Below are positions 23,544 through 42,224 of a stretch of DNA of 42,385 bases, piece after piece (position 1 is the first letter of the stretch; every line of letters begins with the position of its first letter). The stretch spans positions 1 to 42,385 of the forward strand of contig JACSRR010000163.1 of the NCBI GenBank assembly GCA_014879635.1, given 5' to 3'. Origin of the DNA: Ignavibacteriaceae bacterium. Its GTDB lineage: Bacteria; Bacteroidota; Ignavibacteria; Ignavibacteriales; Ignavibacteriaceae. The position numbers and the translations under genes are program-made. A model generated the notes under the pieces. The model saw only the letters and a list, made by a program, of their open reading frames with translations. It searched no databases and was not told the DNA's origin.

Positions 23544-25538
23544 ATGCTTAAAAAACTCTTTTACTTCTTTTTATTTACTCCAATTATCTTTGGGCAAAAT
23601 TACGAACTTCAAATTGCCATTGATAACTATAACAACGGGAAATTTTCGGAAGCAGTCTCTGTTTTCCAAAAATATATTGATTCAGGCTCTAAAGAGAAAG
23701 ACATTTTTTTAGCAGCTTCTGACTGCTATATTAAGCTTAATAATTATCCTAAAGCTATTTCAATTCTAGAAAAATATAGAACAGTTTTCGGTGATGAGTT
23801 CAACATTAATTTTCTACTTGCACAACTTTACGCGCAAACAGGAAATTATTTACCCGCAACTAATATTTTATCGGTACTGATAAGAAACTATCCTGATTCT
23901 AATTCTGCTAAAATCTACCTATCTGATGTGTTCTTAACTGTTGGCGTAACTCAATATGGGAGTAAAGACACTATAAATGCCGAAATTAATTTTAAAAATT
24001 CGCTAATTTACAATCCTTTTAATAAACAGGCACGGGTAAACTTATTAATTTTATTCCTTGAGTCAAAACGGTATAATGATGCACTCAAATTTGCCGAAGA
24101 AGGTTACAGGTTCTTTAACAACGATAATAATATCGCCTTAATATATTTTGAAGTTTTAATAGGGTTAGAAAATTTTACGGACGCACTGCCCGTATTAGAG
24201 GTTATTGCTAAAAGATTGCCGGATGATATTCAAATTCAGCTAAACCTTGCTATGCTTTACAGGTATAATAATTCTCCCGAAAAAGCTGTGCAGGTTTATG
24301 AAAATTTACGGAAGAATTTTCCGGGTAATAAAGATGTTTTTGAAGCCGAAATTAAATATTATGAGCTTTTTTCCGACGATGAAAAAATTATATCTTTATA
24401 TTTAGAATACTTGATTTATAAACCCGATGATAAAGAAATGAAGCTCAGACTTGCAAAGAAGTATGAATATACCGGAAATTTTGACAAAGCTCGAGAAATT
24501 TATTTGACATTAAACCCAAATCAAGAAGACCAATCAATAAATGTGTTAATTGCCGAAAACTACTCGGCTGCGGGTGATTTGGAGTCAGCTATTAGTCAAC
24601 TTCTAAGTATAATTGAAGATAAAAAAGCGGATCCATTTATTTATTCTAAATTATTCGAATTATTTCAAAAGTCAGGAAAGATAGAGAATGCTAAAGGTAT
24701 CTTACTTGCCGGATTAAAAAACTTCCCGTTTTCACTTGAATTAAATCTCGAATTGGTAAAAGTATATTATAACGAGCAAAAATTTGATAGTGCATTTATT
24801 GTATTAGAAACAATTTCCGGATATTCAAGAGAAGTACCCGAAATCCCCTATTATTTTGCTTTGATTTACAAAATCAATAATGAAAAAACTGCAGCAATTA
24901 GAAATTATTCAAGAGCAATAAGAGTTTCGCTTAAAGAAACAGGCAGAATTCAGACCTCTATTTCCGGTTCATTTAATAATGAGGCTATTACAAATCCCGA
25001 TAGTGCAAAAATTATTCAAGATGAAGCAGAAAAATTAAGAGTTTTTATATATATCATTAATTCAAGTTTTGCAGATTTGTCAACAATCTGTAATAATGAG
25101 GAATTTCTTGAAGTAATAGATAATTTATTAAGTGAACTACCTCAAGCAGCACTTATTTATGTTGAAAAAGGCAAGTTTTTACTTAAAACAGGTAAAACTG
25201 CTGAGGCAAGACAGGAGCTTGAAAAAGCTCAAATACTTTCTCCTTCAACAGTTGAGGTTCAAGAGGCTCTCGGTGAGTATTACGAGAAAACCGGTGATTT
25301 TGAAAATGCACTACTCTCTTTTAGAAGGGCTAACTCGCTTGACAAAGAAAATCAAAAATATTATAGAAAAATTATTGACTTAGCGGTAAAGTCAAACAAA
25401 TTAGACGAAATTTGCGATTATTGGCTTCAAGTGTACAAAACTTCAAAAAGCAATATTTTATTAAAAGAATTTCTTATTGAAGCCTTACACAAAGCAAACA
25501 GAACTAAAGAAGCAATTGAAATCATAAAAAGCAATTGA
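23544..25538 (+). CDS. TPR-repeat protein, secreted or periplasmic
   Basis: Signal peptide MLKKLFYFFLFTPIIFGQ; repeated TPR signatures, e.g. 'AIDNYNNGKFSEAVSVFQKYID', 'LAQLYAQTGNYLPATNILSVLI', 'LGEYYEKTGDFENALLSFRRANSLD'. Confidence 0.88.
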   Translation: MLKKLFYFFLFTPIIFGQNYELQIAIDNYNNGKFSEAVSVFQKYIDSGSKEKDIFLAASDCYIKLNNYPKAISILEKYRTVFGDEFNINFLLAQLYAQTGNYLPATNILSVLIRNYPDSNSAKIYLSDVFLTVGVTQYGSKDTINAEINFKNSLIYNPFNKQARVNLLILFLESKRYNDALKFAEEGYRFFNNDNNIALIYFEVLIGLENFTDALPVLEVIAKRLPDDIQIQLNLAMLYRYNNSPEKAVQVYENLRKNFPGNKDVFEAEIKYYELFSDDEKIISLYLEYLIYKPDDKEMKLRLAKKYEYTGNFDKAREIYLTLNPNQEDQSINVLIAENYSAAGDLESAISQLLSIIEDKKADPFIYSKLFELFQKSGKIENAKGILLAGLKNFPFSLELNLELVKVYYNEQKFDSAFIVLETISGYSREVPEIPYYFALIYKINNEKTAAIRNYSRAIRVSLKETGRIQTSISGSFNNEAITNPDSAKIIQDEAEKLRVFIYIINSSFADLSTICNNEEFLEVIDNLLSELPQAALIYVEKGKFLLKTGKTAEARQELEKAQILSPSTVEVQEALGEYYEKTGDFENALLSFRRANSLDKENQKYYRKIIDLAVKSNKLDEICDYWLQVYKTSKSNILLKEFLIEALHKANRTKEAIEIIKSN

Positions 25539-25552
25539 CGATCACAAATTAC

Positions 25553-27322
25553 TTAAAACCTGTAGCTCCAAGTTAAACTGCCGGTAAACTCGTTAAAACT
25601 GATTGTATTCTTGTCTTTACCCGAAAAAAACGAACCTCTAAACATCACTCCTATATTACTACCATCAAAAACGGGATAATTTGATTGAATTACTAACACG
25701 CTTGTGCCGCTTACATCCGAATTTGTGAAAGAATATGAAAGAGAATTGTTTAATTTATCGTCTAACATTTTATAATTCACTCTAGCGTTTACTGTCTCAG
25801 AATTGTTGTTTCCCCTCGGTCCCAGATCTACAACATTAAAACTTACCGTTAAATTTGTACTTAATTGCTTATTAAAGTTTGAAGTAATTCCAAAATTATA
25901 CCCCTGCGAATTAACTTCATTATCGCCCCTGATTTTGTTCTTTGTGGCAAAATTTTGAGTCGTAAAATTTGTACTTAATGTGTGCGCATATCCGAATGCT
26001 TCCATTTGATAATTGATATTTGCCCCTATGTTATAGCCACCGTTATCTACTTTAATTGTATCATTTTTTGCGTTATTAGCCATTGAATTGAAATTTGTAT
26101 TTAATGTTACGCTCAGCTCATTTAAAGGTCTTATAGCTAATACAACTCCGTAATTATCTCTAAATGTAGTATATAGCTTCTGATCTATTACATTATCGTT
26201 CTGCCTTTGATAGTTTGTTTGAATTGCAATCATTCCCCCCAATAAATTGAAACTTACAGCTCCGTTTATTATTTGACGGTCATTGATTATTGAAGCAATG
26301 CCTAACGACGCATAACCCGGACCAACTAAAGTATATGCAAATCTCGCATTCCCCAATGTAGAATTATATCCTAACTCTGAATGGAGTGCATAATCCGCAT
26401 TTGTCGTAATTCTTGGTGTATAATAATCACGCATAAACTCCGGTACATCTTTTGAGTCTATTTCATCACTGTAAGTATCTTTCGTAAAAAGACTAACGGA
26501 GAACTCGCTTTTTATTTTTAAGGAGTTCTCAAATAGATTTAATCCCCAATTTACCCCAACTATCATATTTTCTTCAGGCGTTACGCCTACATAAGAGGTA
26601 TCTGCTTGAAGCAAACCTCCTCCTGATGGTATAGAGTCAATTTGTTGAAATATATTTCTACTTAGCGAGTTTAAGTCGTCTTTGCTTCTAAGGAAATTTA
26701 TGTCAAAATGGTCTCCGCTACCATCTCCTATTCCTAACTTGGCTGCTATAACATATCTTGAATAAGTTGAATTAAAAGCTCCTTGTTCGGTAGCTCTTTG
26801 AGTTTGACCGCCTACAATTTGAAAACGGAGTAAACCGGGATATAATTCTAACCCCGCACCCCTTACCATTACATCGGCTAATGTAAAACGCGACATTTGA
26901 TGGCTAAAATCTCCTAAGTGGGCTACGCCCCATCCCCAATCGGGGTGAAGAGCAATCGTATTAATATTTTGCCTTGCAGCACTCCCTTCGGTTGATAGAA
27001 ATAGATCAAAATTTACACTGAAATTGTCAAAAAGCGAGATAGTTGGTCTGAAGTAAATTCTTCCCGATTCTCCGGGTCTTCTGCTATCTCTTCCCGTAAT
27101 TCCGTACAACTCACCAAATAAACCAAACTCTCCGGATATCCTTACTTGTTTTAACGCTTCATCCCAAAATGTGCTCTCTTCAGTAACTTCACCTCCAAAC
27201 ATCTTCATAAATTGAACAGAATCAATCTTCGGAATTGCAGGCGGAAGATCTAAATCTTGTGATTTCATAAAAAATGAAGGGAAAAAAGATAATACTAAAA
27301 AATAAAGTAAAAATTTATTCAA
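25553..27322 (-). CDS. Outer membrane beta-barrel protein, third gene of the giant-protein operon
   Basis: Signal peptide 'NKFLLYFLVLSFFPSFFMKSQ'; long amphipathic-strand pattern; C-terminal '..FTGSLTWSYRF' OMP-like beta-signal; apparent TTG start immediately after the upstream stop. Confidence 0.65.
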   Translation of the reverse strand: MNKFLLYFLVLSFFPSFFMKSQDLDLPPAIPKIDSVQFMKMFGGEVTEESTFWDEALKQVRISGEFGLFGELYGITGRDSRRPGESGRIYFRPTISLFDNFSVNFDLFLSTEGSAARQNINTIALHPDWGWGVAHLGDFSHQMSRFTLADVMVRGAGLELYPGLLRFQIVGGQTQRATEQGAFNSTYSRYVIAAKLGIGDGSGDHFDINFLRSKDDLNSLSRNIFQQIDSIPSGGGLLQADTSYVGVTPEENMIVGVNWGLNLFENSLKIKSEFSVSLFTKDTYSDEIDSKDVPEFMRDYYTPRITTNADYALHSELGYNSTLGNARFAYTLVGPGYASLGIASIINDRQIINGAVSFNLLGGMIAIQTNYQRQNDNVIDQKLYTTFRDNYGVVLAIRPLNELSVTLNTNFNSMANNAKNDTIKVDNGGYNIGANINYQMEAFGYAHTLSTNFTTQNFATKNKIRGDNEVNSQGYNFGITSNFNKQLSTNLTVSFNVVDLGPRGNNNSETVNARVNYKMLDDKLNNSLSYSFTNSDVSGTSVLVIQSNYPVFDGSNIGVMFRGSFFSGKDKNTISFNEFTGSLTWSYRF

Positions 27323-27323
27323 T

Positions 27324-29282
27324 TTAAATGCCCCCCGTTACATTTGCATATTTACTCCATTCACTCTCATTTCCGGATGTATCAACTGCCCTAACCTTGT
27401 AGAAATTCTTAACGGTGCCTTGTGTATCTGTATAAGAAGTCTCGGTAACAAGGTTTGAGTTCAATTTAACATAAACGCCGTTTGGAATTTCAGATCTATA
27501 CAGATTATAGCCGGCTAAGTCATTATCGCCTACTCTTACCCAGGTTATTTTAACAGAGTTATCCTCTAATGACGCAGTTACATAACGCACTTGAGAAGGA
27601 GGCGTCTTGTCTAAAATTTTTACCGGCTCGGTTGCTGAAAAATCACTTTTATTTCCTGCAGTATCAATAGCTTGTACTAAATAGATGTAACTTTCTAACA
27701 ACTTGACTGTATTGTCTATATAAACTGCAGGGAATTTAGTAACCGTGGTTAAAAGAGCCGGAGTTTCATTTTCTCTCTGTCTAAAAATTTTAATTTCCTT
27801 TACATCACCCGAGGAAGATGAACCCGTAATAATTTCAACTCCTCTGCCTTGTTTAAATGTGGCAGAAACCGGAGAAGGGGGAGCAGGCGCTTCATTATCG
27901 GGCACAATTATTTCAAAAATAGGGCTAACGGTGCTTTCATTTTCCGCTCTATCAAGTACGCTAACCGAATAGTATATTTTTCTACCCGCAGGCAACCCGG
28001 TGCCTCCGTAACCGCTATCAATAAATATCGTTGAAGATGTAACCCCTGCGGCTGCCAAAACATCTCTTCTTTCGCCCCTAAATATTTTATATAGATAAGC
28101 ATCATCTGATTTTGATTTTTCAATTTCTAATCTAACAAAACGATTTTCTACGCTTCCTGTTTTTATTACCACCGGTTCCGGAGCAATCAAATCTTCTAAA
28201 TAAACGCTAGCAACTTGACTTAAAATACTTTCAAGGTTCTCTGAAGAAACGGATGTTACAAAATAAAAATATCTTTTGCCGTAAGATGCGGTACTATCTG
28301 TAAAAACGGGTTTCGAATATTCAATTAATTTTGAGTTTAATTTTAAGGAATCAGAGCCTAAACTTTCTTTTCTGTAAATATTGTAACCGGTGATATTACT
28401 CTCAGAGGCAACATTCCAAGAAAGAAAAATAAAATAATCCGAACCGGCAGCCGTAAGCCCTGAAGGAGCGGAAGGGGGCATTTTCTGGTCACTCTCTACT
28501 CTAACTATTTCTGAACTTCCGCTTTCTCTGCCTGAAGGGTCAACTGCGGTGATATAATATTCGTAAACTGACCTTGAATCAGGTTTAATATCGGTAAATA
28601 TATTTTCCGAATCATCATCTCTTAAATTAAATCCGTTATTTACAACCCTAAATTCACCACTATTCTCTTTTCTATAAATATTAAAGCGAACTGCAAGATT
28701 ATTCCTGTCCTCTGCCCACTTTGGATAATCCCAGCTTAGGGTTACAATTCCTTTAACCGATTTTGCCTTCAAATTAACAGGCTTTGATGGTTTTACTACC
28801 GATGCATTTACAGTTTTTGTAAATTGAGATGTACTTGAACCGGTTCTCCCAAAATATTCAATTTTATACTCATAGCTGTTACCTTCACTCACTTCTAAAT
28901 CGTAATAGACTCTTCCGGCAACTTCGGCTGCTGAAAGAAACATCAAAGATAGCAAAGCGGATTTAAAGCTATTTCCTTTTACCCGCCTTATAACTTCAAT
29001 TTCACTATCGGCGTCCAAAATTCTGCTTAACTGTTTATAATCATTAGCAAGAATATTCATTGCATCCGTAAATTCGGATATAGATTTAACAGGGTTATCA
29101 GAATTCAGTTTGACAAACTCACCGCCTGCCGATCTTCTTGAAACTAAAACATATTCATCAACAGCGGGTGCTTTTGTTAAAAATATTACTGCTTTTTCTC
29201 CGTTATACATATAAAGAAGGTCGGCGTCTTGAGGTAAAACCACCGTATAAATCAACAAAACAAATAATAATATCTTTACCAT
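27324..29282 (-). CDS. Multi-FN3 domain exported protein, second gene of the giant-protein operon
   Basis: Several FN3 units ('VTLSWDYPKWAEDRNNLAVRFNIYRKE', 'IFLSWNVASESNITGYNIYRKESLG', 'VKITWVRVGDNDLAGYNLYRSEIPNG'). The track starts at TTG 29297; ATG 29282 (ATGGTAA overlap with the giant gene's stop) with upstream GGAGAG is more likely. Confidence 0.8.
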   Translation of the reverse strand: MVKILLFVLLIYTVVLPQDADLLYMYNGEKAVIFLTKAPAVDEYVLVSRRSAGGEFVKLNSDNPVKSISEFTDAMNILANDYKQLSRILDADSEIEVIRRVKGNSFKSALLSLMFLSAAEVAGRVYYDLEVSEGNSYEYKIEYFGRTGSSTSQFTKTVNASVVKPSKPVNLKAKSVKGIVTLSWDYPKWAEDRNNLAVRFNIYRKENSGEFRVVNNGFNLRDDDSENIFTDIKPDSRSVYEYYITAVDPSGRESGSSEIVRVESDQKMPPSAPSGLTAAGSDYFIFLSWNVASESNITGYNIYRKESLGSDSLKLNSKLIEYSKPVFTDSTASYGKRYFYFVTSVSSENLESILSQVASVYLEDLIAPEPVVIKTGSVENRFVRLEIEKSKSDDAYLYKIFRGERRDVLAAAGVTSSTIFIDSGYGGTGLPAGRKIYYSVSVLDRAENESTVSPIFEIIVPDNEAPAPPSPVSATFKQGRGVEIITGSSSSGDVKEIKIFRQRENETPALLTTVTKFPAVYIDNTVKLLESYIYLVQAIDTAGNKSDFSATEPVKILDKTPPSQVRYVTASLEDNSVKITWVRVGDNDLAGYNLYRSEIPNGVYVKLNSNLVTETSYTDTQGTVKNFYKVRAVDTSGNESEWSKYANVTGGI

Positions 29283-32200
29283 GTAAACTCTCTCCAAATT
29301 ACGGGGCTTCCATAGTTACCAAATTCAGCGTAAGTCCCTATAAAAAACCGCCGCCCGGGCCACATTTGAAGCCCTGTTGAAGTATCCAAAAAAATGTTAC
29401 CTTGTCCTGTTGTCCATTGCAAAATATCTGTATTACCCTCGCCGGATCCTATAGCGTACCACCAAGTGGCATCATAAGGCAAATAGGTTGCCGAATATAA
29501 ATTTAGGACATATTTTCGCATTGCCCACCCAAGATGCGTAAGTGAAATTATTGGTTGCGGCTCAGGTAGTGTAAATGTAAACGGGAAATACTCTCTATCT
29601 ATTTGTTTTACTTCATAAACATTACTTACGGTTCCCTGTGATGATACACTCCTAACACCTACATAGTAATTAGTACCGATGTTAAGATTGTTAAAGTCAT
29701 AATTAAAAGGTATTTCTTGATTTTCAGGAAATCCCGGCGGAATATTTAAATCTACCCAACCGGTCAAACTTGTATCTGTATATGAACTTCTACCTATGTT
29801 ATATTGATATTTTGCTATTGCCGGTGAGTGTGTATATTCTTGAGTGTCAAACTTTAAAGTTCTAAAAGCTGCATAATCATAATACTTTGCCACCGGAACC
29901 GGGGGGATAAAAGGAGCTGAAACCGGACCAACAGAAATAAAATTACCTGCTTTATTACCTCCGTTTATTGCTCTAATATTTAAGTATTTACCGTCTAAAA
30001 GAGTCAAGATATCTGCCGGTATAGCAACAATTCTATCTTGAGGGATATTCCTAAACGAGTCATGAACAGTCCAACCTAAATTACCGGTTGCGCCCGGTGA
30101 TGCGCCTATTGAAATCTGATAATACTTTACTCCTGATTCTTGATCTGAACTTAACTTCTCAAAGAATAGTTTGCTTCCGTTATTAAAGAACCATTTAACC
30201 ACAGGTTCGGAGGGTTTAGTATTGTCATTTATATTAAATTCTCTCATATAAAGTATATCACTTTTTGAACCGGTATTCTTAATGCTTCTAATTTCACCAA
30301 TCAGATTATCAGGCGAATAACTACCTGTCAAAGATATATTTGCGGATAACCCGTTTGTAAAGACCCAGCCCGGTGTTAAATCTGTATTTGTATCAAAAGT
30401 TCTTAATTTGTATTCATATCCAATTACGCCGGTAGTGTCTGTCATCAACCAGTTAAGATTTATTTGATTAATTAATGAGGGATCGTCATTTATTATTTCA
30501 GGTAATGGTTGAGGTGCCTCCCCATAAGTTGCTCCCTGTGTTGATTGTGAAGCATCAATTTGTGCCGGTAAACCGGAGGGAGTTGGCGGCTTAGAAAAAT
30601 CAAAGTTTATGATAATTGACTTTGAGGAATGTCCAAAAATACCCGAACCGTTATAAGTATTTAAAGTTAGTGTTAACGGAGCATCATAAATATAATTAAT
30701 GGAGTTTTGTAAACCCGTTTCAAGTGTGGCGGTATAGTCAATGCCCGAACTACTAAATAAATAATCGCCGAAAGAAAAATAACCGGCATTTAAACTCACC
30801 GAAGTAATACCTGAATTAGGATCTGATGTTCTCACTTTTATAGAAAATTGATCAGCCCCAATTGTATATACGGTATTATTACCCGAAACGGAAACTAATG
30901 CTCCCGGAATACTAAATTCTTCTATAACCGGAGGTGTATCGTCAACTAAAAGAAATTGCTCGCTACTAACAATATCACCCGCAATACCTGCGTTATTTAC
31001 GGCTCTTACATGCATATAATAGTACCCGTAGTCCAAGTTTTGGATCAAATCTGCCGGTACTCTAACTATTCCGTTAGGCGGAATATTTTTAAATGCAGGG
31101 TGTTCAACCCACTGAATAGCTTGATAATTCCACGGGAAATCTTGAGTGATCGCAAATTGATACCTGTCTATGCCTGATTCAGGATCGGCAGCCTGTTTTA
31201 AGAAAAACAGATTTAGATTAGACTTTGGCATATTTCCTGATGCACCTTGAGGAACTCCAAAGAAATACCTTAGAGTTGGGTTACCCGGTTTGCTATTATC
31301 TGCTAAGCTATAATATGTTGAAGTTTGAACATCACTTTTTACACCGGTGTATCTTACGCTTCTAAGTTCAATCTTTACGCTTGAAAAATTGGATGTAACA
31401 GGGAAAGTAAAATTAACAACATTAGATTTACCCGTACTATCCCATCCGTTTGTTCTTACGGAGTCACCGGGAAGAGTAATTACTCTATATTCATAGTGAG
31501 TAATATCATCATCATTTTCTATTGTCCAGTTAAATTTAATTGAAACAGTACCTTGAACAACAACCGGTTCAGGCGCCGGAAGTGGTTGAAAGATATTTCC
31601 GAAACGCCCTTGAGCCGGAACTGAAAAAGAAGTGTTAAATGTAACAGGTTGTTGTTGAGTCATTACCGGTTGCGCCGGCTTTTTTCTATCAATAAAAATT
31701 CTTGCAGATGAACCGACGGCACTGAATAAACCGTCTTGATTTTTTGCCCTCACATTTACGAAATAATTATTGTCACCTTCTAAATTGAGCCCCTGTATTT
31801 GCATATTTGAAATTGTACCTACACTTTCCCAGTTTCTAATATTTGTTGAACCGGGTGCGGTACCAATTGAATATTCGTAACCGGTAACCCCTGATTGAGG
31901 ATCAGATGCTAACCACTTAGCAGTAATTGAATTTGTTAATGCCGTAACATAATGAAAGTTTGTACCTTGACCACGCTCTAACATATTTAATATTGTTACT
32001 ACAGGTGTAGTAGGCGGAGTATTATCAGGCGGGGCACTTGTTGAAACAGGATCTGAATTTGCAAAAACACCTACGGGACCTGTAACAATATTTGAAGTTA
32101 GTGTTCTATAACTAACAAAACCGGCTTTATTTCTTGCTCTCAACTGAAATTTACTAACTACCGTATTTTCTTCTACTGAAACCGGGAAATGATGTACATC

Positions 32201-35200
32201 TATAGAGTTTAATAAACCTATACTCATAAATCCCGTATCAGAAGGTGAAGAAATACCCTCGTTAAACTTTATTGCATATTCAATAACATTATTGCTTGAA
32301 GTTGACCAGTAAATATTTTGGTTATTAATATACCTTAGATTCTGGTTAGTTTGGCTTAAATTACTAATAACAGGTAAAGTTAAATCATTTACAACCGCAT
32401 CTCTTTTTGCCGTTAGTGTTGTTAAAGATGGTACCGCATTTTTTACTGTATCGTGCTGTTCGGCTTTCCAGTAAACATATCTATCAAGTACCTCAAATAA
32501 ATTTTGCGCCATCATTTGCCTTTTGACAAAAACAGAGTCAAGTAGCTTTGTATATAATACTTGGTTAGGATAGAAAGCATCTAACCGCTGTTGGGCAAGA
32601 TTCTTTAATCCTACTATTTTGGTTATTGCATCATTACTTACTTTAAATAAAGCTTCTCTGGGTATCTCATTGTAAAGTTGCTTAAGTACAGAATAAGCAG
32701 ATTCTCTCTTCTGATCAAGTGTATAACCTGAAAATATACTATTGAAGGTACCTAAAGAATTGTCTTCTCCCGCTAAACTTTTAATTCTCTGCCATCTGTT
32801 GAGTGCTCTTCTTGTGATTTCCAATTCACCAAAATACATTGGGATATTAAATGCATTTTTTAACTCTATATCTTGATAAAAGAATGCGGTTGAAACTTGC
32901 GGATTGAAAATCAAACTAGGCAACGAAGTATTAATAAAATACTGCCTTTCACGGTATTTGAACATTCCCATCATCATATAAAGAGACTCAACCGAAAATC
33001 TTATATTATTAAACCTATTTCCAAAATTTAGAAACTCACTATTTGTTGAAAATAGATTATCAAAATTTGAGATCATCTCCTCAATACCGGAAAGATTTGC
33101 TTTCATCAAATTATCATATTCAATTGTTTTAGCTTGATAAAGATTTATATTCTCAAGATTGTTTAAAACCAAACTTTCATTTAGATTAAATGAAGGTCCT
33201 GCAATAACTGTAGCAATAGTATTTTCGCCTTGCATACTATATGATACTTGTGGTGAGATAAAGGAAACGGATTGAAGCGGGTTAGAAATATTTATTTCGG
33301 GCGTTTCACCGGGTAGCACAATATTTGAAGTTATCGAATTTAAACTCGCACTTAAATTACTAAATGTGGCGTTAAAGTTAGTTATTTCCTCATTAACAGT
33401 CTGTATTGCTTGAATAATAGATTGCCTTAAATTTTCATTTGACACATTCAATAATGCAGCTCTTAGCGATTCCAAATACCAAGCCATACTTTGCCTGAAA
33501 TAACTTACACTCGGGTTAGGATTCCAAGTTACATTATTTTCTTCAATAATCATCATTGAATCTAACCAGTTTCTCCAGCTGTTTGCTACATTAGGGTCAA
33601 AAGCTCTTGCCCGGGTAATTGTTTGATACATTCCGTCAATAGCAGCGAAAATCGTTTCTTGAGTAATACCTAAAGTAGCGGGAATGTTAGCCATTTGAGT
33701 TCTGGCATTTTCAGCTGCAGTGTTAAAAGCATCTCCGATATTTTTAGCTTCTTCAATCAATGCATCCATTGACCGGTCTCTTCCAAAACCGGCACTAAAA
33801 CCACCGGGTGCAACTTTCAACCAAATATCACCGTCCCAGCTTACAAAAAGTAGAGTAATTGAAAGTGAGGCACCACCGTAAAAATAAAAATTTGGTGAAC
33901 CGATTAGAACACCTTTCACACTACCTCTTGCCGAAGCAATTCCTCCTAAAACCGAAGCATTTATATATACTTCAAGATAAGCACCCCAATCTATATTTGG
34001 CCTGTACCATACTCTTAGCTCTAAACCGCTCTCAACACTTACAATCCAGACATTAAATCCTTGACTCATTGATGCGGAGGCATAAAAACCAAGATTACCG
34101 ACATAAAATTCTCCGCTTCCGGAAATAACACTGATAATATTAAAATTTGTGTTACCAATGATACCCCAAGTATTGTTGTCATAAATATAAAAAGTAAGAT
34201 TAGCATCTGCAGTAATCAAAGATTTCATATTAAGAATGACATTTAGTGTACCTTCTGCGTATGCATTAGTAAACCCAACAGTTAAATTAAATGTACCATA
34301 AATACTTTGAGTTTGATTTAACAAAACGGCTTTACCGGTTAGATTAAATGATTGGTCAGATAAAGTTAACAATACTTTTGCATTTATTGCATCGCTTGTA
34401 CCAAAAACAAAAGAACCATAAACTAAAACCGCAAAAGAACCTGCGGGGGCGCTAATACTCCCTTTTGTTTCATCATCAAGACCGCAATTAGCTTTAACTA
34501 AATTAATATCTTCAGTTCTTGGGTTAAGAAAGAACCCCCCTCCTATTCCGGTTAAGAAAATGCCGGGACCAATTGCTACCGGTGGCATATTTAACGCCGC
34601 TAAAAATATTCCCGCCCTTGTAGTACCGCCGTCTCTCTCAAATTTTCCTATAACTGCTATATCATAAGCCCTGTTAAGTTTCCCTCTTCCGGCAAATAAC
34701 AAAAAGAAATTCTCCCCTTCAGAACGGTAAGAGATATCAACGGCAAATCTAACCATCCCGCTCTTTAAGCTGAAATTGGCGTTTTTAATTGTTAAACTAA
34801 CGCTATTATCGGTTTTAGTATAAAGAAGAAATTCATCAATGCCTCCTCCTCCAAAATTCTGAATATTAATAGTACCGCCAAATTTTATGAAATTTTTAAC
34901 GGTTATTTCGGTTGAATCAATTGCACCGTTGCTACCTCCTGTTACCATGATTTGTGTTTCATCAAAACTCATGGCAAACTCACTCACACTCAAACTTATA
35001 ATATTTTGTAAATCGAGTGAGCCTCCCGTTATCATTCCGTTTACATTTTCTAATGTTCCGTTAGAATGAATTTTTAGGTTGCTAAAATCTAAAGAACCGC
35101 TAATTTTACTAAAATTGGCAGCCGCGGCACCGCTTACCGTAAGTTTAAAGTTACCGTTACTCAAAGATTCAATATTATGGCTAGTGATGTTTAATTTGAG

Positions 35201-38200
35201 GTTTCCGAACTCTATATCGGTAAGTCCGTTTGCAGTAATCGGTCCCCAAGTATAATCTCCGTTAAAGGAAACCTGTAACCCCGGTGAAATCGTATTACCC
35301 GATCTGCTTCCAAATCTTATATACTTCTCAGTGCTGTTTCTGAAATAAAAACTTGAAACAATTTCTAAATTTGAGTTAAGGTAATCATCTAAATCAATGT
35401 TTAATGCTATATATTCAGGATCAAATTTACCCACCCACAAATTAAATTCTGTTTGGTCATTGCCTCCTAAACCGGGTTCTTCATTAAGTATTACAACTCT
35501 TGCCCCGCCGGATATTGTTCCGTCTGTACCAACCTTCAAGTTAAACATTTGCCTACCGGTATCTGCCGGTTGAGGTAGTTTTACAAATCCGTGTACATCA
35601 AAAAAGTAAACATTGTTTTCAGATGTTACCGCAAGTTTTGAAAGTGCAATCCTGTCTTGTACTACATAAGTCTCTTGAGTTAATAGATTAGCGCCCGACA
35701 TACTAATGCTACCGTCAGTTCCAACTTTAAATCCATAAAATTGGCTCGTTTTATCCATAAATGTAATTTCGCCGCTCATTGACATATAAAAAACATCGTT
35801 ATTGTAACTAAACGAGATAGCTTTGTAAGAATCAATGTTTTTGAGACTAAACTCTGCTTTAAATAACTTGAACGACTGTATTGAAGAAGGGAGTGTTATA
35901 TCAACCTCGGGCACAGAAACCGAGTTTTTGGAGATTCTTAAACCCGCAAAAGATACTTCAAATTCGGGAGACAGTGTGGGCGCACTTAGAGTACCGCTCA
36001 ATAGTAATTCAAAGTCATCTTGGCTAAAAGTAATAGAAATTGCCGGTTGTTCGCCAATACTTTCAGGTTTGAATCTCGCAATAGCGATAGGAATTTCAGC
36101 TCCGGGTATATGAGAGAAATCGAATGTGAAGTTGAAAATTCCGTTTTGATACAATGCAGTGAAATGTAGATCCGTTGTATCTTGGCCTGATTTAAAGAAC
36201 TTTGATGCAATATCGCCGGAGAGTTTAAAGCTTTTTTCCGCACCAAAGTTGAAACTTAACCCTTGAAGTTTAAACTCGGCAAATGAGCCCATTCTAAAAG
36301 TTTTAATGTAATTTGAATTTTGAATGTAAGTTTGCGAATAATTACCGAGAGTAACAGTGCCTGACAATCCTTCGTTATTTATGATCACAGGATCAACAAC
36401 AACCTCTAAACCGCCTAAAGATTGGGGTAGAGTAATAGAACCTCCCGTAGTTAGTTCATAATTTGAGCCTGAAGCTGCAAAACCTAAACGGGTTAACCTG
36501 AGCAGAATACCCTTAGAACTTAAATCTATAAGCGGGGCATTTGCACCTTCTAATAAAATGGATCCGCTTACAGGTTCAAATGTTGTTGCATTAACTGTTA
36601 AGTCAAATGAAATATTAAAAACGGGGGCTTCCGTATCACCATATTTTAATGCCGGAACAACTAATTGAATCATTTGGCCTTCACGGCTACCGATTCTCAA
36701 ACCGTTCTCTGTGTTTTCGGTCTTTATTAATACATCACCGTTCTCATTTTTTAATACTAAATATGCTCTCTCTAAAGAACCGAGAGGCATTTTTTCCGGA
36801 ATATCAATTGCTGCTAAAATATTATCGAGAACAAATCCCGTAGTATCTATAAACGCTAATCTTTCGGCGCCTCTATAAAAAGACATTCTTCCGTTTGATA
36901 CTCTAAAATCAACGAATGAAATTTCACAGTTATCTTCAAATGAAAGCCTTAGAGCATTATACACCTGATTGTTATAAACAAAAGAAACGGCGCTTTCACC
37001 CGATAGAGCCAACTTATTGTTCGAAATTGTTATCCCTGAAGGCATCGTTAAAAGCATTGAATTATTCTGGGTTAATTCATAATCCCCTCTAACCGCCTTC
37101 CATTTTAACCCGCCGGTTTCAATAGATACCAATAATCCGAATGAACTATTAATCGATACCGACCCCCCTTGATAAGATAAATCTTCTAAGGATAAAAGAA
37201 AATCATCAAAATTAACTTCAATATTAGCCCCTCCGTCAAAACTTAGAGCACTTGAACCTGCAAATTTTAAACCCTCTTTGCTAACAGAAGCTTGATTTAT
37301 GGTAAAGTTAAAAACCGGATTATTTTTGGGAAGTGAAATAGTGAAAGGTTCATTAATACCAATTGCACCGTCAAGTATTCTACCGCTTATAAGATCAAGC
37401 GAAATATTACCGGAACCTGATGCCGTATTATTTTCATCAATTGGAACGGTAAGATTTGCTGCTAAATCTAGCTTTACATATTGAGTATCTTCTAAATTTG
37501 AGAAAAACAAATCTGAAGTAGTTACATTTAGGGTGGCGCTGCCTATTTTGAAGTCACAATCAGGTACAAAACCGGTTATGCTTCCGGATATTTTACCCAA
37601 ACTGTTAATTCTTAACTCATTATTACCTAAAGCTGTTGTACCGTTACTATTTTCACACCTTAGATTTTCGGGAAGAACAAAATTTCCTTTAATTTTTACA
37701 TCGATAATCTGTTCACCGTCATCTCCCTCAGATAAAGAACCTCCTAATCCTTTAATTACATATCCCGCACCGTTAGAACCGAAAGGAATAAAGAAATTAT
37801 CCCCCGAATAAGTAATATCTTCAATGCTGCCGGTTATTCTGCTTCCGTTAAATCCCGCATCAACTACATAAATAGTAATATTCTTTAGTTGTTGAGGTAT
37901 TTTAGGAAGATCCGGAAATTTTAACTCAAAATCAGTTGAGAATGCTAAATCATCTAAACTAATAGAAAACGGATCAAAAATATTTATTGTGAAGTTTGGC
38001 ATGCTGAATCTTAGCGGCAGGAACGAAAATCCTTTTATGTCAAATGCAGGAATGTTGAGATTTGGTATTGATAGCTCGGGTAGCGTTAAACCTAATTTAC
38101 TTATTCTTATATCGCTAAGATTTGGAATAGAAAAATTTAATTCGGGGAAATTGAGATTAATATCCAAATCAATATCAAAATCCCACCCAAATTCAGGTGA

Positions 38201-41200
38201 AAATGATAAACGAGGCAGTCTAAAATCGAGTAAATCTAAGTTAATTTTACCAAATGCAAGTTTTGGAAGAGAATCAGGCAAGTCAACGCTAAAATTAAGA
38301 ATTTCAAATAAACTATTTGTTACTCTAATTGTAGTAGAAGCACCGTAAGATTTTGATTCCGTAAGTTTAAGCCTAATTCCGCCGGTTAAAGCAATGTCAA
38401 AATCAGGAACGCTAAAATTAACCAGATCGGTATTTATAGAGCCTGCAACATTAGTGAGTTCTAAAGCGAGACGGTCAGAATCCTCAATTAAAAATATTTT
38501 GTTATTAGTATTAAAATCAAACTGTGCAGCCAGATAACCGGATTGATCAATCTGAAGTACCAAGTTATCGTTTCCGATTTCTGTTTCAAATAATGTAAGT
38601 ACTCCGCCAAATTTGAGCTTGGTGATACCGTTTTCGTTTTTGTACTCAAACCGTTTTAATTTGTAAGGTATTCCTGCTTTTGTTAAATCAAACAAACTTA
38701 ATTTTTCATCAGGTATTGCTACCTCAATTCTACCTAACTGCAATGAAAAATCAGTTTTATCAACGGTTATGTCAAATTCAATCAGAAAACCGGGATCTGC
38801 GGGGTTATTAAATTTTAACCCGGGGAAAGAGGCAAGAACGGGTACTCCTTCCTTAGTTCTAATTCTAACATTCTCACCCGCCTCTTCAAAATTTACTAAT
38901 AATGAATCATTTTGGTCTCTTAATTGAATAAAGGCTATATCACTTCTCGGCAGGGGTAATTTAGCCGGTAAAACAGTTGTCAACAAATTAATGGCATATA
39001 AAGTAAAGCCTGATTGTGATAATGATGCAACTATAACATCATTTAATAGTAAATCAACCTTACCCGCCGTAATCTCTTTATTGTTCAGCCCAATCTTAAA
39101 GCCGTTCGTAAAATTTGCGGCCAAATCATAGGTTCTACCCTCGTATCTAAGATGGGCACTACCAAAACCTGCAATACCTAAACCATCTTTTGTTATTTCT
39201 AATGTATCGGGCATATTTATCATAACGCCCGTACTCTGAGGTGCAGTATTATTTTTTTCCGTAAAGGTTAACACTGGACTTCCGCTTTCTAATGCGGCAT
39301 TTATTCCGAAGCCGTTATCAAAGATTATTCTACCGCCCTGTATTTCGTTATTTGAATAGTCAAACGCTAATTCGTCAAATGTTACGCCGATATTTGCGCC
39401 TGAGCCTATATTAGCACTACTTCTTCCGTTAATTTTAATACCGCTTTTAGTTATGTTCATTGAGCTCAGATTAAAACTCAATACGGGATTCTCTAAAGGA
39501 TAGCTGAGCGTATAAGGTGTTGAAATATCTCCGGTAAATTCAGTGAGAGAATTGTTTAGAACATCGTAAACAAAAGCTACATCCGCCTCAAGCTCGCCTC
39601 CTGCAATATTGCTTAAGTTTAGCCTTGCTTGACCACCTAGAATAACTTTTTGACCATCGTTTCCGGCACTAAATTGAAGACTTGAATTAACTATATTTAA
39701 TCCGTAATTTCCTACTTTCAAACTGCATGCAGGAACAATATTTTGCACTTCTCCCGAAATATTGCCGTTACCGCTTAGTAAAAGATATGACGACATTAAT
39801 TCTAACTCGGGAACTGCGCCCTCACATCCAAATGCCCCTTCGGGTAACTTCAAGCCTCCTTTTAGCCTTAACTCCGGATTAAATGAAAATCCTCCCGAAC
39901 TAAACGGTGCATCTATTAATCCTGAGAACTCTTTAACATTAAATTTCACCCCTCCCGCTATCGGAATTTCTAATCCTTGAAATGTAACCGGAGGTATTGT
40001 TATACTTAATCCGTTAAAACTCAAATTTGCATTTAAGTTAATATCGGGGTTTATCAGCTCTATCGGGGTACCTACAGGCAAGTTAGGAAGGCTTATCTTT
40101 GCACCAAAATTTAAGTTAAGATTTCCGCCTATTAGATTGTTAACTATATCTGTCAGGGAAATTGAAGATCCGGTTGAATTTCCGTTGAAGAACTCTAATT
40201 TTATTCCTTGAAACTCGAAGAATCTGCTTCCGCCACCTGTACCTGTGCCTAAATTCAATCCGCTAAAAGAAGGAAGGTTAAATCCCGATGAAGTTAGTGT
40301 TAATCCGTCAAATGGTCCAAGAGTAAAACCGCCTAAATCGGGGAAAATATAAGACATATTAAAATCTATACCGAAATCCCACTGACCGTTCTGATAACTG
40401 AGATTGTTAAAATTTAAACCGCTTAGGTCTATTTTCATAAATCCCAAATTTATGTTTGGCGAACTTCCCGTGTTCATTGAAGAGAAATTTTGCACGCTAA
40501 ACATACCGTTCCCAATAGCTGCCGAAAGATTAACCTTATAATTGATAAAATCAGGAAGATTAACTCCAAATTCGGAGTTTATACTCAGGTCAATACTTGA
40601 TGCTCCCGAGAGAGGGCTATAGCTAAAATTACCGGAAACATTTCTAAGTTTAAGAGAAATGTAATCTGTGGCTGAAGGAAAAGGGAAAATATCTACCGGA
40701 ACATTACAGCTTATCAATCCGGAAATATCTCCGTTTGACGAAAGACTCACTCCGTTTATCTCACAAAGCGTGTAATTGTTAAAGACTACTAATTCTCCGT
40801 TGAGTCTTAAAGAAGCGTTAGGATATGAAAGGGTAAACCTTGTTAAGTTCAGCTTTGCAGTTTCATTACCGAAAGAGTAAACGGGAAGAGCGGAAGATCC
40901 TTCAAACTCTAGATTGCCCGTTATTGCTCCCGTTGAGCTTACGGTTAACTCGCCTATAGGATTTATGGGCGTAGATAAGCCCGGTAGCTCTATTCTTCCT
41001 CTAATCGATAATCCGTTAAACGGAGTAAACTCTATGTACTCAGGCTTTAAGTATTCTGATACTATACTCGAGGGAATTATATCCGGTTGAATGTTTGCAT
41101 ATACTCTACCCGCAGTAAAAGTAAAATTTGTGTAGCTTCCTTTTACAAATGTTAGATTTTCAACTGTTACATTTATTATCCTTTGTTGACCGTCTGCTAA

Positions 41201-42148
41201 GCGAAGTTTTAAATCAGTTACCCCGCTCATAATAAAGTTTTCGGTATCTTGCGAAATTTGAAGTAAATCATAACTATCAAACCACGCTGTATTTCTAATT
41301 AAATTTACAGCTAAAAATGGAAGAAGGTTCGGGTTTTGTTCGCCGTAATCATAGATAAAGCTCCACAGCTCGCTACTGCCGTTGTTTGCCGTTAGAGGAT
41401 TTCCCAAATCGTCGGTTACTCTTATTCTCCATGCATACTCTTTTCCTTTTTCTAAGGTAAGAGCATCTTGAGGATATTGATAAAATGTTGTACCCGTTAG
41501 GTTTACTTGATGATGAGGAGGATTTGCCGAAAGTGCCTGGTTAAGAGTTTGCCCCTGCAACCTTTCTACTATTAATAAATTATAATTTGCGTTTATCGTT
41601 GTAGGTAGATTTACGGGTGCCCATTGAAATATCGGGAATTGCTGATTAAATGCCGATGCGTTTGAAGGTGCAAATAATACCGGTGCATCCGGATATATTA
41701 TATTAATCATCCCGCTCGATTCTGTTAAAATTTGATTATTACTTCCTAATACTTTAATAATAACATCAAAAGTACCCTCGGGAAACCGGTTCGTTCTTAA
41801 TACTTGCTGATAGGTAGTATTATCAAAATTAACATCACGCCAATCTATTACTTTAGTGCCCGCATATACATTGCTAGTTGGGCCTGAAGGAAAACTCTCT
41901 ACGCTGCTTCTTGCTCTTACAAGTTCCCTGTTTTGTGAGTCCTTAATTATCAATTGAAGACGGAAATCTACCGCTGCTGTACCTAAGTAGTTAACTGTTA
42001 AAAGAGATGACTCGGGGTTTCTTGTCCACTCAGATAAAAAGGATGTTGGTGAAGGATCTAATACTAAAAATGAATTCCACAAATTCGATTGTGAATATGT
42101 ATTGGATATTATAAATACAAATAAAAAAAGTGTAAAAACTCTTCTCAT
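29276..42148 (-). CDS. Giant exported protein (4290 aa): N-terminal Ig/TANFOR-like region, duplicated beta modules, alpha-helical insert, tandem C-terminal FN3 domains
   Basis: Single uninterrupted ORF; signal peptide MRRVFTLFLFVFIISNTYSQ; N-terminal '...RTNRFPEGTFDVIIKVLGSNNQIL...PDAPVLFAPSNASAFNQQFPIFQWAPVN...LEKGKEYAWRIRVTDDLGNPL'; FN3 units such as 'KWLASDPQSGVTGYEYSIGTAPG' at the C-terminus. No PNPF-type T9SS C-terminal domain. Confidence 0.88.
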   Translation of the reverse strand: MRRVFTLFLFVFIISNTYSQSNLWNSFLVLDPSPTSFLSEWTRNPESSLLTVNYLGTAAVDFRLQLIIKDSQNRELVRARSSVESFPSGPTSNVYAGTKVIDWRDVNFDNTTYQQVLRTNRFPEGTFDVIIKVLGSNNQILTESSGMINIIYPDAPVLFAPSNASAFNQQFPIFQWAPVNLPTTINANYNLLIVERLQGQTLNQALSANPPHHQVNLTGTTFYQYPQDALTLEKGKEYAWRIRVTDDLGNPLTANNGSSELWSFIYDYGEQNPNLLPFLAVNLIRNTAWFDSYDLLQISQDTENFIMSGVTDLKLRLADGQQRIINVTVENLTFVKGSYTNFTFTAGRVYANIQPDIIPSSIVSEYLKPEYIEFTPFNGLSIRGRIELPGLSTPINPIGELTVSSTGAITGNLEFEGSSALPVYSFGNETAKLNLTRFTLSYPNASLRLNGELVVFNNYTLCEINGVSLSSNGDISGLISCNVPVDIFPFPSATDYISLKLRNVSGNFSYSPLSGASSIDLSINSEFGVNLPDFINYKVNLSAAIGNGMFSVQNFSSMNTGSSPNINLGFMKIDLSGLNFNNLSYQNGQWDFGIDFNMSYIFPDLGGFTLGPFDGLTLTSSGFNLPSFSGLNLGTGTGGGSRFFEFQGIKLEFFNGNSTGSSISLTDIVNNLIGGNLNLNFGAKISLPNLPVGTPIELINPDINLNANLSFNGLSITIPPVTFQGLEIPIAGGVKFNVKEFSGLIDAPFSSGGFSFNPELRLKGGLKLPEGAFGCEGAVPELELMSSYLLLSGNGNISGEVQNIVPACSLKVGNYGLNIVNSSLQFSAGNDGQKVILGGQARLNLSNIAGGELEADVAFVYDVLNNSLTEFTGDISTPYTLSYPLENPVLSFNLSSMNITKSGIKINGRSSANIGSGANIGVTFDELAFDYSNNEIQGGRIIFDNGFGINAALESGSPVLTFTEKNNTAPQSTGVMINMPDTLEITKDGLGIAGFGSAHLRYEGRTYDLAANFTNGFKIGLNNKEITAGKVDLLLNDVIVASLSQSGFTLYAINLLTTVLPAKLPLPRSDIAFIQLRDQNDSLLVNFEEAGENVRIRTKEGVPVLASFPGLKFNNPADPGFLIEFDITVDKTDFSLQLGRIEVAIPDEKLSLFDLTKAGIPYKLKRFEYKNENGITKLKFGGVLTLFETEIGNDNLVLQIDQSGYLAAQFDFNTNNKIFLIEDSDRLALELTNVAGSINTDLVNFSVPDFDIALTGGIRLKLTESKSYGASTTIRVTNSLFEILNFSVDLPDSLPKLAFGKINLDLLDFRLPRLSFSPEFGWDFDIDLDINLNFPELNFSIPNLSDIRISKLGLTLPELSIPNLNIPAFDIKGFSFLPLRFSMPNFTINIFDPFSISLDDLAFSTDFELKFPDLPKIPQQLKNITIYVVDAGFNGSRITGSIEDITYSGDNFFIPFGSNGAGYVIKGLGGSLSEGDDGEQIIDVKIKGNFVLPENLRCENSNGTTALGNNELRINSLGKISGSITGFVPDCDFKIGSATLNVTTSDLFFSNLEDTQYVKLDLAANLTVPIDENNTASGSGNISLDLISGRILDGAIGINEPFTISLPKNNPVFNFTINQASVSKEGLKFAGSSALSFDGGANIEVNFDDFLLSLEDLSYQGGSVSINSSFGLLVSIETGGLKWKAVRGDYELTQNNSMLLTMPSGITISNNKLALSGESAVSFVYNNQVYNALRLSFEDNCEISFVDFRVSNGRMSFYRGAERLAFIDTTGFVLDNILAAIDIPEKMPLGSLERAYLVLKNENGDVLIKTENTENGLRIGSREGQMIQLVVPALKYGDTEAPVFNISFDLTVNATTFEPVSGSILLEGANAPLIDLSSKGILLRLTRLGFAASGSNYELTTGGSITLPQSLGGLEVVVDPVIINNEGLSGTVTLGNYSQTYIQNSNYIKTFRMGSFAEFKLQGLSFNFGAEKSFKLSGDIASKFFKSGQDTTDLHFTALYQNGIFNFTFDFSHIPGAEIPIAIARFKPESIGEQPAISITFSQDDFELLLSGTLSAPTLSPEFEVSFAGLRISKNSVSVPEVDITLPSSIQSFKLFKAEFSLKNIDSYKAISFSYNNDVFYMSMSGEITFMDKTSQFYGFKVGTDGSISMSGANLLTQETYVVQDRIALSKLAVTSENNVYFFDVHGFVKLPQPADTGRQMFNLKVGTDGTISGGARVVILNEEPGLGGNDQTEFNLWVGKFDPEYIALNIDLDDYLNSNLEIVSSFYFRNSTEKYIRFGSRSGNTISPGLQVSFNGDYTWGPITANGLTDIEFGNLKLNITSHNIESLSNGNFKLTVSGAAAANFSKISGSLDFSNLKIHSNGTLENVNGMITGGSLDLQNIISLSVSEFAMSFDETQIMVTGGSNGAIDSTEITVKNFIKFGGTINIQNFGGGGIDEFLLYTKTDNSVSLTIKNANFSLKSGMVRFAVDISYRSEGENFFLLFAGRGKLNRAYDIAVIGKFERDGGTTRAGIFLAALNMPPVAIGPGIFLTGIGGGFFLNPRTEDINLVKANCGLDDETKGSISAPAGSFAVLVYGSFVFGTSDAINAKVLLTLSDQSFNLTGKAVLLNQTQSIYGTFNLTVGFTNAYAEGTLNVILNMKSLITADANLTFYIYDNNTWGIIGNTNFNIISVISGSGEFYVGNLGFYASASMSQGFNVWIVSVESGLELRVWYRPNIDWGAYLEVYINASVLGGIASARGSVKGVLIGSPNFYFYGGASLSITLLFVSWDGDIWLKVAPGGFSAGFGRDRSMDALIEEAKNIGDAFNTAAENARTQMANIPATLGITQETIFAAIDGMYQTITRARAFDPNVANSWRNWLDSMMIIEENNVTWNPNPSVSYFRQSMAWYLESLRAALLNVSNENLRQSIIQAIQTVNEEITNFNATFSNLSASLNSITSNIVLPGETPEINISNPLQSVSFISPQVSYSMQGENTIATVIAGPSFNLNESLVLNNLENINLYQAKTIEYDNLMKANLSGIEEMISNFDNLFSTNSEFLNFGNRFNNIRFSVESLYMMMGMFKYRERQYFINTSLPSLIFNPQVSTAFFYQDIELKNAFNIPMYFGELEITRRALNRWQRIKSLAGEDNSLGTFNSIFSGYTLDQKRESAYSVLKQLYNEIPREALFKVSNDAITKIVGLKNLAQQRLDAFYPNQVLYTKLLDSVFVKRQMMAQNLFEVLDRYVYWKAEQHDTVKNAVPSLTTLTAKRDAVVNDLTLPVISNLSQTNQNLRYINNQNIYWSTSSNNVIEYAIKFNEGISSPSDTGFMSIGLLNSIDVHHFPVSVEENTVVSKFQLRARNKAGFVSYRTLTSNIVTGPVGVFANSDPVSTSAPPDNTPPTTPVVTILNMLERGQGTNFHYVTALTNSITAKWLASDPQSGVTGYEYSIGTAPGSTNIRNWESVGTISNMQIQGLNLEGDNNYFVNVRAKNQDGLFSAVGSSARIFIDRKKPAQPVMTQQQPVTFNTSFSVPAQGRFGNIFQPLPAPEPVVVQGTVSIKFNWTIENDDDITHYEYRVITLPGDSVRTNGWDSTGKSNVVNFTFPVTSNFSSVKIELRSVRYTGVKSDVQTSTYYSLADNSKPGNPTLRYFFGVPQGASGNMPKSNLNLFFLKQAADPESGIDRYQFAITQDFPWNYQAIQWVEHPAFKNIPPNGIVRVPADLIQNLDYGYYYMHVRAVNNAGIAGDIVSSEQFLLVDDTPPVIEEFSIPGALVSVSGNNTVYTIGADQFSIKVRTSDPNSGITSVSLNAGYFSFGDYLFSSSGIDYTATLETGLQNSINYIYDAPLTLTLNTYNGSGIFGHSSKSIIINFDFSKPPTPSGLPAQIDASQSTQGATYGEAPQPLPEIINDDPSLINQINLNWLMTDTTGVIGYEYKLRTFDTNTDLTPGWVFTNGLSANISLTGSYSPDNLIGEIRSIKNTGSKSDILYMREFNINDNTKPSEPVVKWFFNNGSKLFFEKLSSDQESGVKYYQISIGASPGATGNLGWTVHDSFRNIPQDRIVAIPADILTLLDGKYLNIRAINGGNKAGNFISVGPVSAPFIPPVPVAKYYDYAAFRTLKFDTQEYTHSPAIAKYQYNIGRSSYTDTSLTGWVDLNIPPGFPENQEIPFNYDFNNLNIGTNYYVGVRSVSSQGTVSNVYEVKQIDREYFPFTFTLPEPQPIISLTHLGWAMRKYVLNLYSATYLPYDATWWYAIGSGEGNTDILQWTTGQGNIFLDTSTGLQMWPGRRFFIGTYAEFGNYGSPVIWREFTW

Positions 42149-42194: not shown

Positions 42195-42224
42195 CAAAAA
42201 TAATAATTTTTGCTTCTTTGTCAA
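42195..42224 (-). promoter_or_regulatory. Predicted Bacteroidetes-type promoter for the giant-protein operon
   Basis: Minus strand TTG-N19-TATTTTTG about 46 nt upstream of the start codon at 42148. Confidence 0.42.

What the first reader, a model, noticed from the sequence alone, without database searches (positions are those of the whole stretch)
25553..42148. Three-gene operon: 4290-aa multi-module exported protein, FN3-chain protein and outer-membrane barrel
SEEN: three minus-strand genes in series. The giant gene's stop overlaps the FN3 gene's start (ATGGTAA), and the barrel gene starts within a few nt of the FN3 gene's stop. The giant has a Sec signal peptide, a long beta-rich body, an alpha-helical block and C-terminal FN3 domains. 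KNOWN: large FN3/TANFOR-type proteins occur in Bacteroidetes but I know of no established function. INFERENCE: the conserved triplet could be a surface fibre, adhesin or envelope-spanning apparatus in which the barrel anchors or exports the giant. Neither the giant nor the FN3 protein carries a recognisable PNPF-type T9SS C-terminal domain, although this genome uses such domains nearby, so the export route is open.
Basis: partly seen in the sequence, partly recalled or inferred. Interest (0 to 1): 0.75.

Follow-up and report, generated by a model that had tools for sequence, protein, structure and literature searches.

The report
Giant-protein outer-membrane export gene cluster
Four bacterial genes that are inherited together make a giant rod-shaped exported protein, two helper proteins and a very wide outer-membrane channel; this is probably an uncharacterised way of displaying a giant protein at the cell surface, and it occurs in several bacterial phyla.

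Summary
Three co-directional genes encode a 4290-aa Sec-exported giant, a 652-aa FN3 protein and an outer-membrane barrel. A fourth partner was missed: a secreted TPR protein (23544-25538, +), convergent here but lying between the FN3 and barrel genes in most relatives.

The set is a real unit. Of 44 giants with downstream sequence, 40 have both partners alongside and all have the FN3 partner. The four proteins co-evolve (r 0.89-0.95), and paralogous operons segregate as blocks. The set spans Ignavibacteria-type Bacteroidota, Kryptoniota, Zixibacteria, WOR-3 and Gemmatimonadota.

The giant begins with a divergent TANFOR-type domain but has no detectable toxin domain. Its ~2150-aa body is an indel-poor, amphipathic beta-structure with a ~735-aa tandem duplication. 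The barrel matches no Pfam family and models as about 26 strands; in a sister branch it is fused to a TANFOR-like N-domain. Three Gemmatimonadota genomes carry the cluster with no detectable SprA or T9SS tails.

Most likely this is a dedicated, T9SS-independent export and display apparatus. Architecture, linkage and homology are shown; the mechanism is inferred. It is a new variant of the TANFOR class.

The parts
29276..42148 (-). Giant exported protein, 4290 aa, with Sec signal peptide
   Evidence: Intact ORF; homologues in 45 of 147 relatives matched at least by the N-domain
41309..42091 (-). Giant residues 20-280: TANFOR-type core plus Ig-like domain (N-domain)
   Evidence: Profile matches to TIGR02542-positive proteins; hhalign E 1.7e-32 over 239 columns
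34859..41308 (-). Giant residues 281-2430: long amphipathic beta-body, nearly free of indels among homologues
   Evidence: Alignment of 13 giants; amphipathicity; model of residues 1700-2829
38504..40696 (-). First copy of the ~735-aa tandem duplication (residues 485-1215)
   Evidence: hhalign E 1.5e-83 and 1.1e-37 for its two halves against the second copy
36269..38503 (-). Second copy of the duplication (residues 1216-1960)
33674..34858 (-). Giant residues 2431-2825: best-conserved C-terminal segment of the rod, regular antiparallel strands
   Evidence: Identity up to 0.51 per block; present in long-body giants of Zixibacteria and Gemmatimonadota; model
32369..33658 (-). Giant residues 2831-3260: helical block, weakly conserved
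   Evidence: helix at its start in the model
29279..32161 (-). Giant residues 3330-4290: FN3-like tail, variable and missing in some homologues
27324..29282 (-). FN3 partner protein, 652 aa, signal peptide, start ATG overlapping the giant's end
   Evidence: family found beside every giant tested
25553..27322 (-). Outer-membrane beta-barrel, 589 aa, about 26 strands, TTG start
23544..25538 (+). Secreted TPR partner protein, 664 aa, convergent with the barrel gene
   Evidence: Pfam TPR; full-length homologue of the TPR gene between FN3 and barrel genes in relatives
42195..42224 (-). Promoter-like element TTG-N19-TATTTTTG about 50 nt upstream of the giant (low information)
   Evidence: Read; promoter-like sites are not enriched in the region

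Best explanation
The cluster is a dedicated four-component outer-membrane export and display apparatus for one giant protein. All four proteins carry signal peptides and are expected to cross the inner membrane by Sec. In the periplasm the TPR protein would act as adaptor or chaperone; the giant's TANFOR-type N-domain would dock at the ~26-strand barrel; the barrel would pass or hold the amphipathic beta-rod so that it is displayed at the cell surface; the FN3 protein would be the rod's structural partner; the helical and FN3 tail would be an optional, variable tip. Shown: gene content, linkage, co-inheritance, homology of the N-domain to TANFOR, a predicted large barrel, and presence in genomes with no detectable T9SS. 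Inferred: periplasmic roles, docking, direction of export, surface location.
For: Overlapping or abutting genes. Genome-level co-occurrence 42 genomes with both giant and barrel matches, of 45 and 49, among 147. 40 of 44 giants have FN3 and barrel genes on the same strand. Distance matrices of the four proteins correlate at 0.89-0.95, and in G006, G031 and G140 the parts follow their operon, not their genome. TPR partner found in 19 of 24 long-body loci. Barrel fused behind a TANFOR-like N-domain in about a dozen loci, which argues that the N-domain works at the barrel. Barrel of about 26 strands, nearest folds MtrB and the FimD/PapC ushers, which hold or export proteins. Three Gemmatimonadota genomes with the cluster show neither SprA nor any Por_Secre_tail, and no CTD is on the components.
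Against: No experiment and no interface model. Most host genomes do have T9SS. True TANFOR loci L153, L154 and L155 lack the barrel, so the barrel is not universal for this class of cargo. The TPR gene was not found in the Gemmatimonadota loci or beside short-body giants. Co-inheritance shows common function, not export. The model of the rod has pTM 0.44.
Confidence: 0.5

Rival explanations
1. The giant leaves the cell by the type IX secretion system, as proposed for TANFOR toxins, and the barrel is an accessory anchor comparable in role to PorP/SprF.
For: The window genome has SprA and about 147 T9SS tails. TANFOR genes neighbour T9SS substrates and more than 95% of their genomes have T9SS (PMC7073777). 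L154 and L155 carry FN3 partner, SprB/CTD protein and TANFOR protein together.
Against: No CTD on giant or FN3 protein. Three Gemmatimonadota genomes with the cluster have no detectable SprA or tails, a fourth has no tails, though these are MAGs.
Confidence: 0.2
2. The amphipathic beta-rod is a lipid or hydrophobic-molecule carrier (like a TamB/VPS13-type groove or the ApoB belt) that works with the wide barrel to move lipids or other hydrophobic material through the envelope.
For: Strand faces strongly amphipathic, beyond shuffles and above the soluble beta-proteins of the window. Best fold matches of the rod are ApoB100, ushers and LptD. Rod length strongly conserved: 2133-2259 aa between N-domain and end segment in 12 giants.
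Against: TM-scores are only 0.10-0.14. No profile similarity to TamB of relatives. TamB coexists with the cluster in four genomes. Two-layer fibre rods are amphipathic too. No membrane anchor apart from the signal peptide.
Confidence: 0.15
3. It is a polymorphic toxin system: the giant delivers a C-terminal toxin into competitors.
For: The N-domain is TANFOR-related, and true TANFOR loci found here do carry nuclease domains (Col-Pyo_DNase 1e-41, LHH).
Against: No toxin domain in the window giant; among the other C-termini of this family scanned only Ig, FN3 and similar domains were found. Some giants end soon after the rod. No immunity-like small gene follows the giant; the next gene is always the FN3 partner or another system gene in complete loci.
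Confidence: 0.07
4. Barrel plus TPR form a porin-cytochrome conduit or a polysaccharide exporter, and the giant is only a surface neighbour.
For: Top fold hit of the barrel is MtrB. TPR plus barrel recalls BcsC, PgaA and AlgK/AlgE (own knowledge).
Against: Genes with several CxxCH motifs occur near only 3 loci of the set (L075, L127, L132) and none in the window. Pfam finds no MtrB, YjbH/GfcD or other exporter family in 44 barrels. Giant and barrel co-evolve at r 0.89.
Confidence: 0.05

Closest known systems
TANFOR-domain polymorphic toxins (TIGR02542; Jana, Salomon and Bosis 2020, PMC7073777)
   Same: Signal peptide, homologous N-terminal TANFOR plus Ig-like module, large size, and a homologous FN3 partner gene in the same cluster.
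   Different: Below the TIGR02542 cut-off; no toxin or immunity gene; a ~2150-aa rod; a barrel and a TPR partner instead of a T9SS-attached SprB-type protein.
Two-partner secretion (TpsA/TpsB)
   Same: A large beta-rich exported protein with a conserved ~250-aa N-terminal module, encoded beside its own outer-membrane barrel (analogy; features of TPS from own knowledge).
   Different: Barrel models as ~26 strands with no detectable POTRA or TpsB family match; FN3 and TPR partners are extra.
Slam (type XI) and other TPR-plus-barrel exporters
   Same: A TPR protein and an outer-membrane barrel encoded together; a TPR_Slam match at E 1e-15 in one TPR homologue.
   Different: TPR matches are promiscuous; the barrel has no DUF560/Slam match and is about twice the size of the Slam barrel (own knowledge); the cargo is not an obvious lipoprotein.
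MtrB and FimD/PapC usher barrels
   Same: Nearest solved folds for the barrel: MtrB E 2.9e-10, TM 0.53; ushers E about 5e-9.
   Different: No sequence family match; no cytochrome; no usher plug, chaperone or pilin genes.
ApoB100 beta-belt, LptD and TamB-like grooves
   Same: A long run of amphipathic antiparallel strands.
   Different: No global similarity (TM 0.10-0.14) and no profile similarity to TamB.

Membership tests
TANFOR polymorphic toxins | TIGR02542 match above its curated cut-off | tested here: not met
   0 of 147 relatives over cut-off; window genome no match at E 0.01
TANFOR polymorphic toxins | N-terminal domain homologous to TANFOR | tested here: met
   Profile hits to the same segment of TIGR02542-positive proteins; hhalign E 1.7e-32
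TANFOR polymorphic toxins | C-terminal or adjacent toxin domain with immunity gene | tested here: not met
   Pfam and NCBIfam scans; next genes are FN3 partner and barrel
Type IX secretion substrate | C-terminal sorting domain (Por_Secre_tail or similar) | tested here: not met
Type IX secretion substrate | Host genome has T9SS | tested here: inconclusive
   Window genome yes; three Gemmatimonadota genomes with the cluster show neither SprA nor tails
Two-partner secretion | TpsB-type barrel with POTRA domains and a TPS domain in the cargo | tested here: not met
   No Pfam match to either in giant, barrel or 44 barrel homologues
Slam / type XI secretion | Slam barrel (DUF560) with TPR domain | tested here: not met
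   TPR partner present but no Slam barrel match in 44 barrels
TamB / AsmA-like lipid transporters | TamB/AsmA sequence family | tested here: not met
   No Pfam match in 26 rod homologues; hhalign against TamB of relatives insignificant
Dedicated outer-membrane export of the giant (functional claim) | Barrel needed for surface display of the giant | not testable with these tools
   Needs a gene deletion and fractionation

The most novel reading that the evidence does not exclude
A previously undescribed, T9SS-independent protein-export system of the FCB superphylum, in which a ~26-strand barrel with an FN3 partner and a TPR adaptor exports or assembles giant TANFOR-type beta-rods; the TANFOR toxins of Flavobacteria-like hosts would be a branch that uses a T9SS-attached protein instead of the barrel.
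Probability: 0.35. Interest if true: 0.85.

Novelty: new variant of a known kind. Interest (0 to 1): 0.62.

Why it matters
How TANFOR-class giants leave the cell is an open question; the published idea is T9SS. A barrel encoded beside the giant, sometimes fused to a TANFOR-like domain and present in genomes without detectable T9SS, gives a concrete alternative that a single gene deletion can test. The barrel and the ~2150-aa rod have no Pfam family and the cluster spans several phyla, so it is a sizeable unannotated piece of bacterial envelope biology.

Tried and rejected
Viral-contig scan with the barrel: nothing. DUF6603 for the conserved rod end: one match at genome-wide E 0.06 falling in the G007 giant, and one member at E 0.01, too weak to claim. 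TamB replacement: TamB is undetected in the window genome but coexists with the cluster in G002, G081, G117 and G140 and is undetected in many genomes without the cluster, so there is no pattern. Cytochrome conduit suggested by the MtrB fold: CxxCH-rich genes near only 3 loci. The 522-aa gene after L153's FN3 gene is not a barrel homologue. Homology between the rod and the barrel: none. An inverse-autotransporter reading of the giant (rod end as its own barrel, FN3 tail as passenger) was considered; it cannot be decided without atomic coordinates and is weakened by giants that end soon after the rod. Paper searches for TANFOR found one relevant study; searches for giant FN3 proteins of Ignavibacteria and for Melioribacter surface proteins found nothing on this locus.

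Full report
OBSERVATION. The window is contig C400 (42,385 bases) of a 3.75-Mb assembly whose named close relative is an Ignavibacteriaceae MAG (MAG_44, JABWCA010000009.1). The giant (4290 aa), the FN3 protein and the barrel are intact, in series on the minus strand and tightly coupled: the FN3 gene's ATG lies inside the giant's end (ATGGTAA) and the barrel's TTG follows the FN3 stop by one base. A Bacteroidota-style promoter-like element (TTG-N19-TATTTTTG) sits about 50 nt before the giant; it is weak evidence, since promoter-like sites are not enriched in the region. Co-transcription is likely from the spacing but was not tested.

A FOURTH PARTNER. The gene convergent with the barrel (23544-25538, +) encodes a TPR protein with a signal peptide. 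Its homologues lie between the FN3 and barrel genes in most long-body loci (for example L062, L066-L073) and are convergent with the barrel in the window's closer relatives (L061, L063-L065, L094). Similarity runs over the full length (22-58% identity with the window protein). Of 24 long-body giants 19 have the TPR gene on the fetched stretch; four of the five without it are Gemmatimonadota loci and the fifth (L093) has a second giant after the FN3 gene.

LINKAGE. Among 147 relatives 45 genomes match the giant, 49 the barrel and 42 both (hypergeometric 9e-26, which ignores shared ancestry). Of 44 giants with at least 4.5 kb downstream, 40 have FN3 and barrel genes on the same strand and all have the FN3 gene. 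The four without a barrel within reach are a tandem second giant (L079), L093, and two loci found through TIGR02542 (L153, L154). Loci were partly chosen by barrel hits, so the genome-level count is the fairer figure. A few barrels stand alone (L097, L098, L132, L133). Distances of the four proteins correlate at 0.89-0.95 over 19 loci. In G006, G031 and G140, which have two operons each, every component follows its operon and not its genome.

DISTRIBUTION. Named hosts of barrel homologues are Ignavibacteriaceae, Melioribacteraceae, Kryptonium and another Kryptoniota MAG, Chlorobiota MAGs, Zixibacteria, Gemmatimonadota and WOR-3.

THE GIANT. Residues 20-280 are a TANFOR-type core plus an Ig-like domain. 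TIGR02542 does not reach its cut-off in any of the 147 relatives, but three of its five weak hits fall in N-domain proteins of this family (L078, L091, L099). TIGR02542-positive proteins from other groups (L153-L156) are hit by the N-domain profile, in L153 over the same segment, and hhalign gives E 1.7e-32 over 239 columns. Residues 281-2825 align across 13 homologues with few gaps at roughly 33% identity, and the distance between N-domain and end segment is 2133-2259 aa in 12 proteins. The body contains a tandem duplication (485-1215 and 1216-1960; E 1.5e-83 and 1.1e-37). The model of 1700-2829 (pLDDT 82, pTM 0.44) is a near-continuous run of strands joined by short turns. The strands are amphipathic well above shuffles, and windowed amphipathicity is higher than in the FN3 protein and DPPIV of the window. 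The closest solved topologies are the ApoB100 belt, ushers and LptD, all with very low TM-scores. The helical block and FN3-like tail are weakly conserved, and the L062 and L110 giants lack the tail. No toxin domain was found; nuclease domains appeared only among the scanned C-termini that include the true TANFOR proteins.

THE BARREL. The model (589 aa, 44 sequences) has pLDDT 85, pTM 0.72 and 28 strand segments, which I read as about 26 membrane strands plus a short hairpin. The best fold match is MtrB (6r2q chain B), with FimD/PapC ushers among the next. Pfam gives nothing for the window member and no reproducible family among 44 homologues. In about a dozen loci of a sister branch the barrel is preceded in the same ORF by a TANFOR-like N-domain. 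With an even strand number both barrel ends should be periplasmic, so the fused N-domain would sit at the periplasmic mouth; by analogy the giant's N-domain would work there too. This step is inference.

LINK TO TANFOR TOXINS. In L154 and L155 the order is FN3 partner, SprB-repeat/T9SS-CTD-type protein, TANFOR protein, matching the published enrichment of FN3 (COG3401), SprB and CTD domains near TANFOR genes (PMC7073777). The FN3 partner there is homologous to the window's, including part of its N-terminal region. So giant plus FN3 partner looks like the common core, and the outer-membrane side differs: barrel, often with TPR, here; a T9SS-attached protein there.

T9SS. Sixteen genomes with the cluster were searched for SprA and Por_Secre_tail. 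Three Gemmatimonadota genomes have neither, a fourth has SprA without detectable tails, and the other twelve have both. Together with the absence of CTDs on the components this makes T9SS unlikely to be obligatory for export; the caveat is that these are metagenome assemblies of unstated completeness.

VERDICT. A real, co-inherited four-gene envelope system whose giant body and barrel are absent from Pfam. Dedicated barrel-mediated export and display of the giant is the best-supported mechanism (confidence 0.5). Direction of export, contacts and surface location are unproven.

Noticed in passing
L076, L081-L089, L095, L096: A sister branch has ORFs of roughly 700-1030 aa in which a TANFOR-like N-domain is fused in front of the barrel.
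   Followed up: partly
L116 and L113: The Zixibacteria Gpa_9 locus is 51% identical in its giant to another FCB locus, suggesting whole-operon transfer between lineages.
   Followed up: partly
L127:14222-17567: Two adjacent genes with 20 and 18 CxxCH motifs lie near a Zixibacteria copy of the cluster; interesting beside the MtrB-like barrel fold, but such genes are near only 3 loci overall.
   Followed up: partly
L132, L133, L097, L098: Barrel homologues without a detected giant or FN3 partner on the fetched stretch.
   Followed up: no
G007:C1:1441888-1442043: A weak DUF6603 match (genome-wide E 0.06) falls in the conserved GG-motif segment of a giant; possible remote relation.
   Followed up: partly
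window 6124-9177, 12490-14118, 14149-16896: Two TonB-dependent-receptor-type barrels with CarboxypepD_reg domains and a T9SS-CTD protein lie close together on the minus strand.
   Followed up: no
L079:5284-18115: Two N-domain giants in tandem upstream of one FN3 and one barrel gene, with the Ig-like half of the N-domain repeated several times.
   Followed up: no
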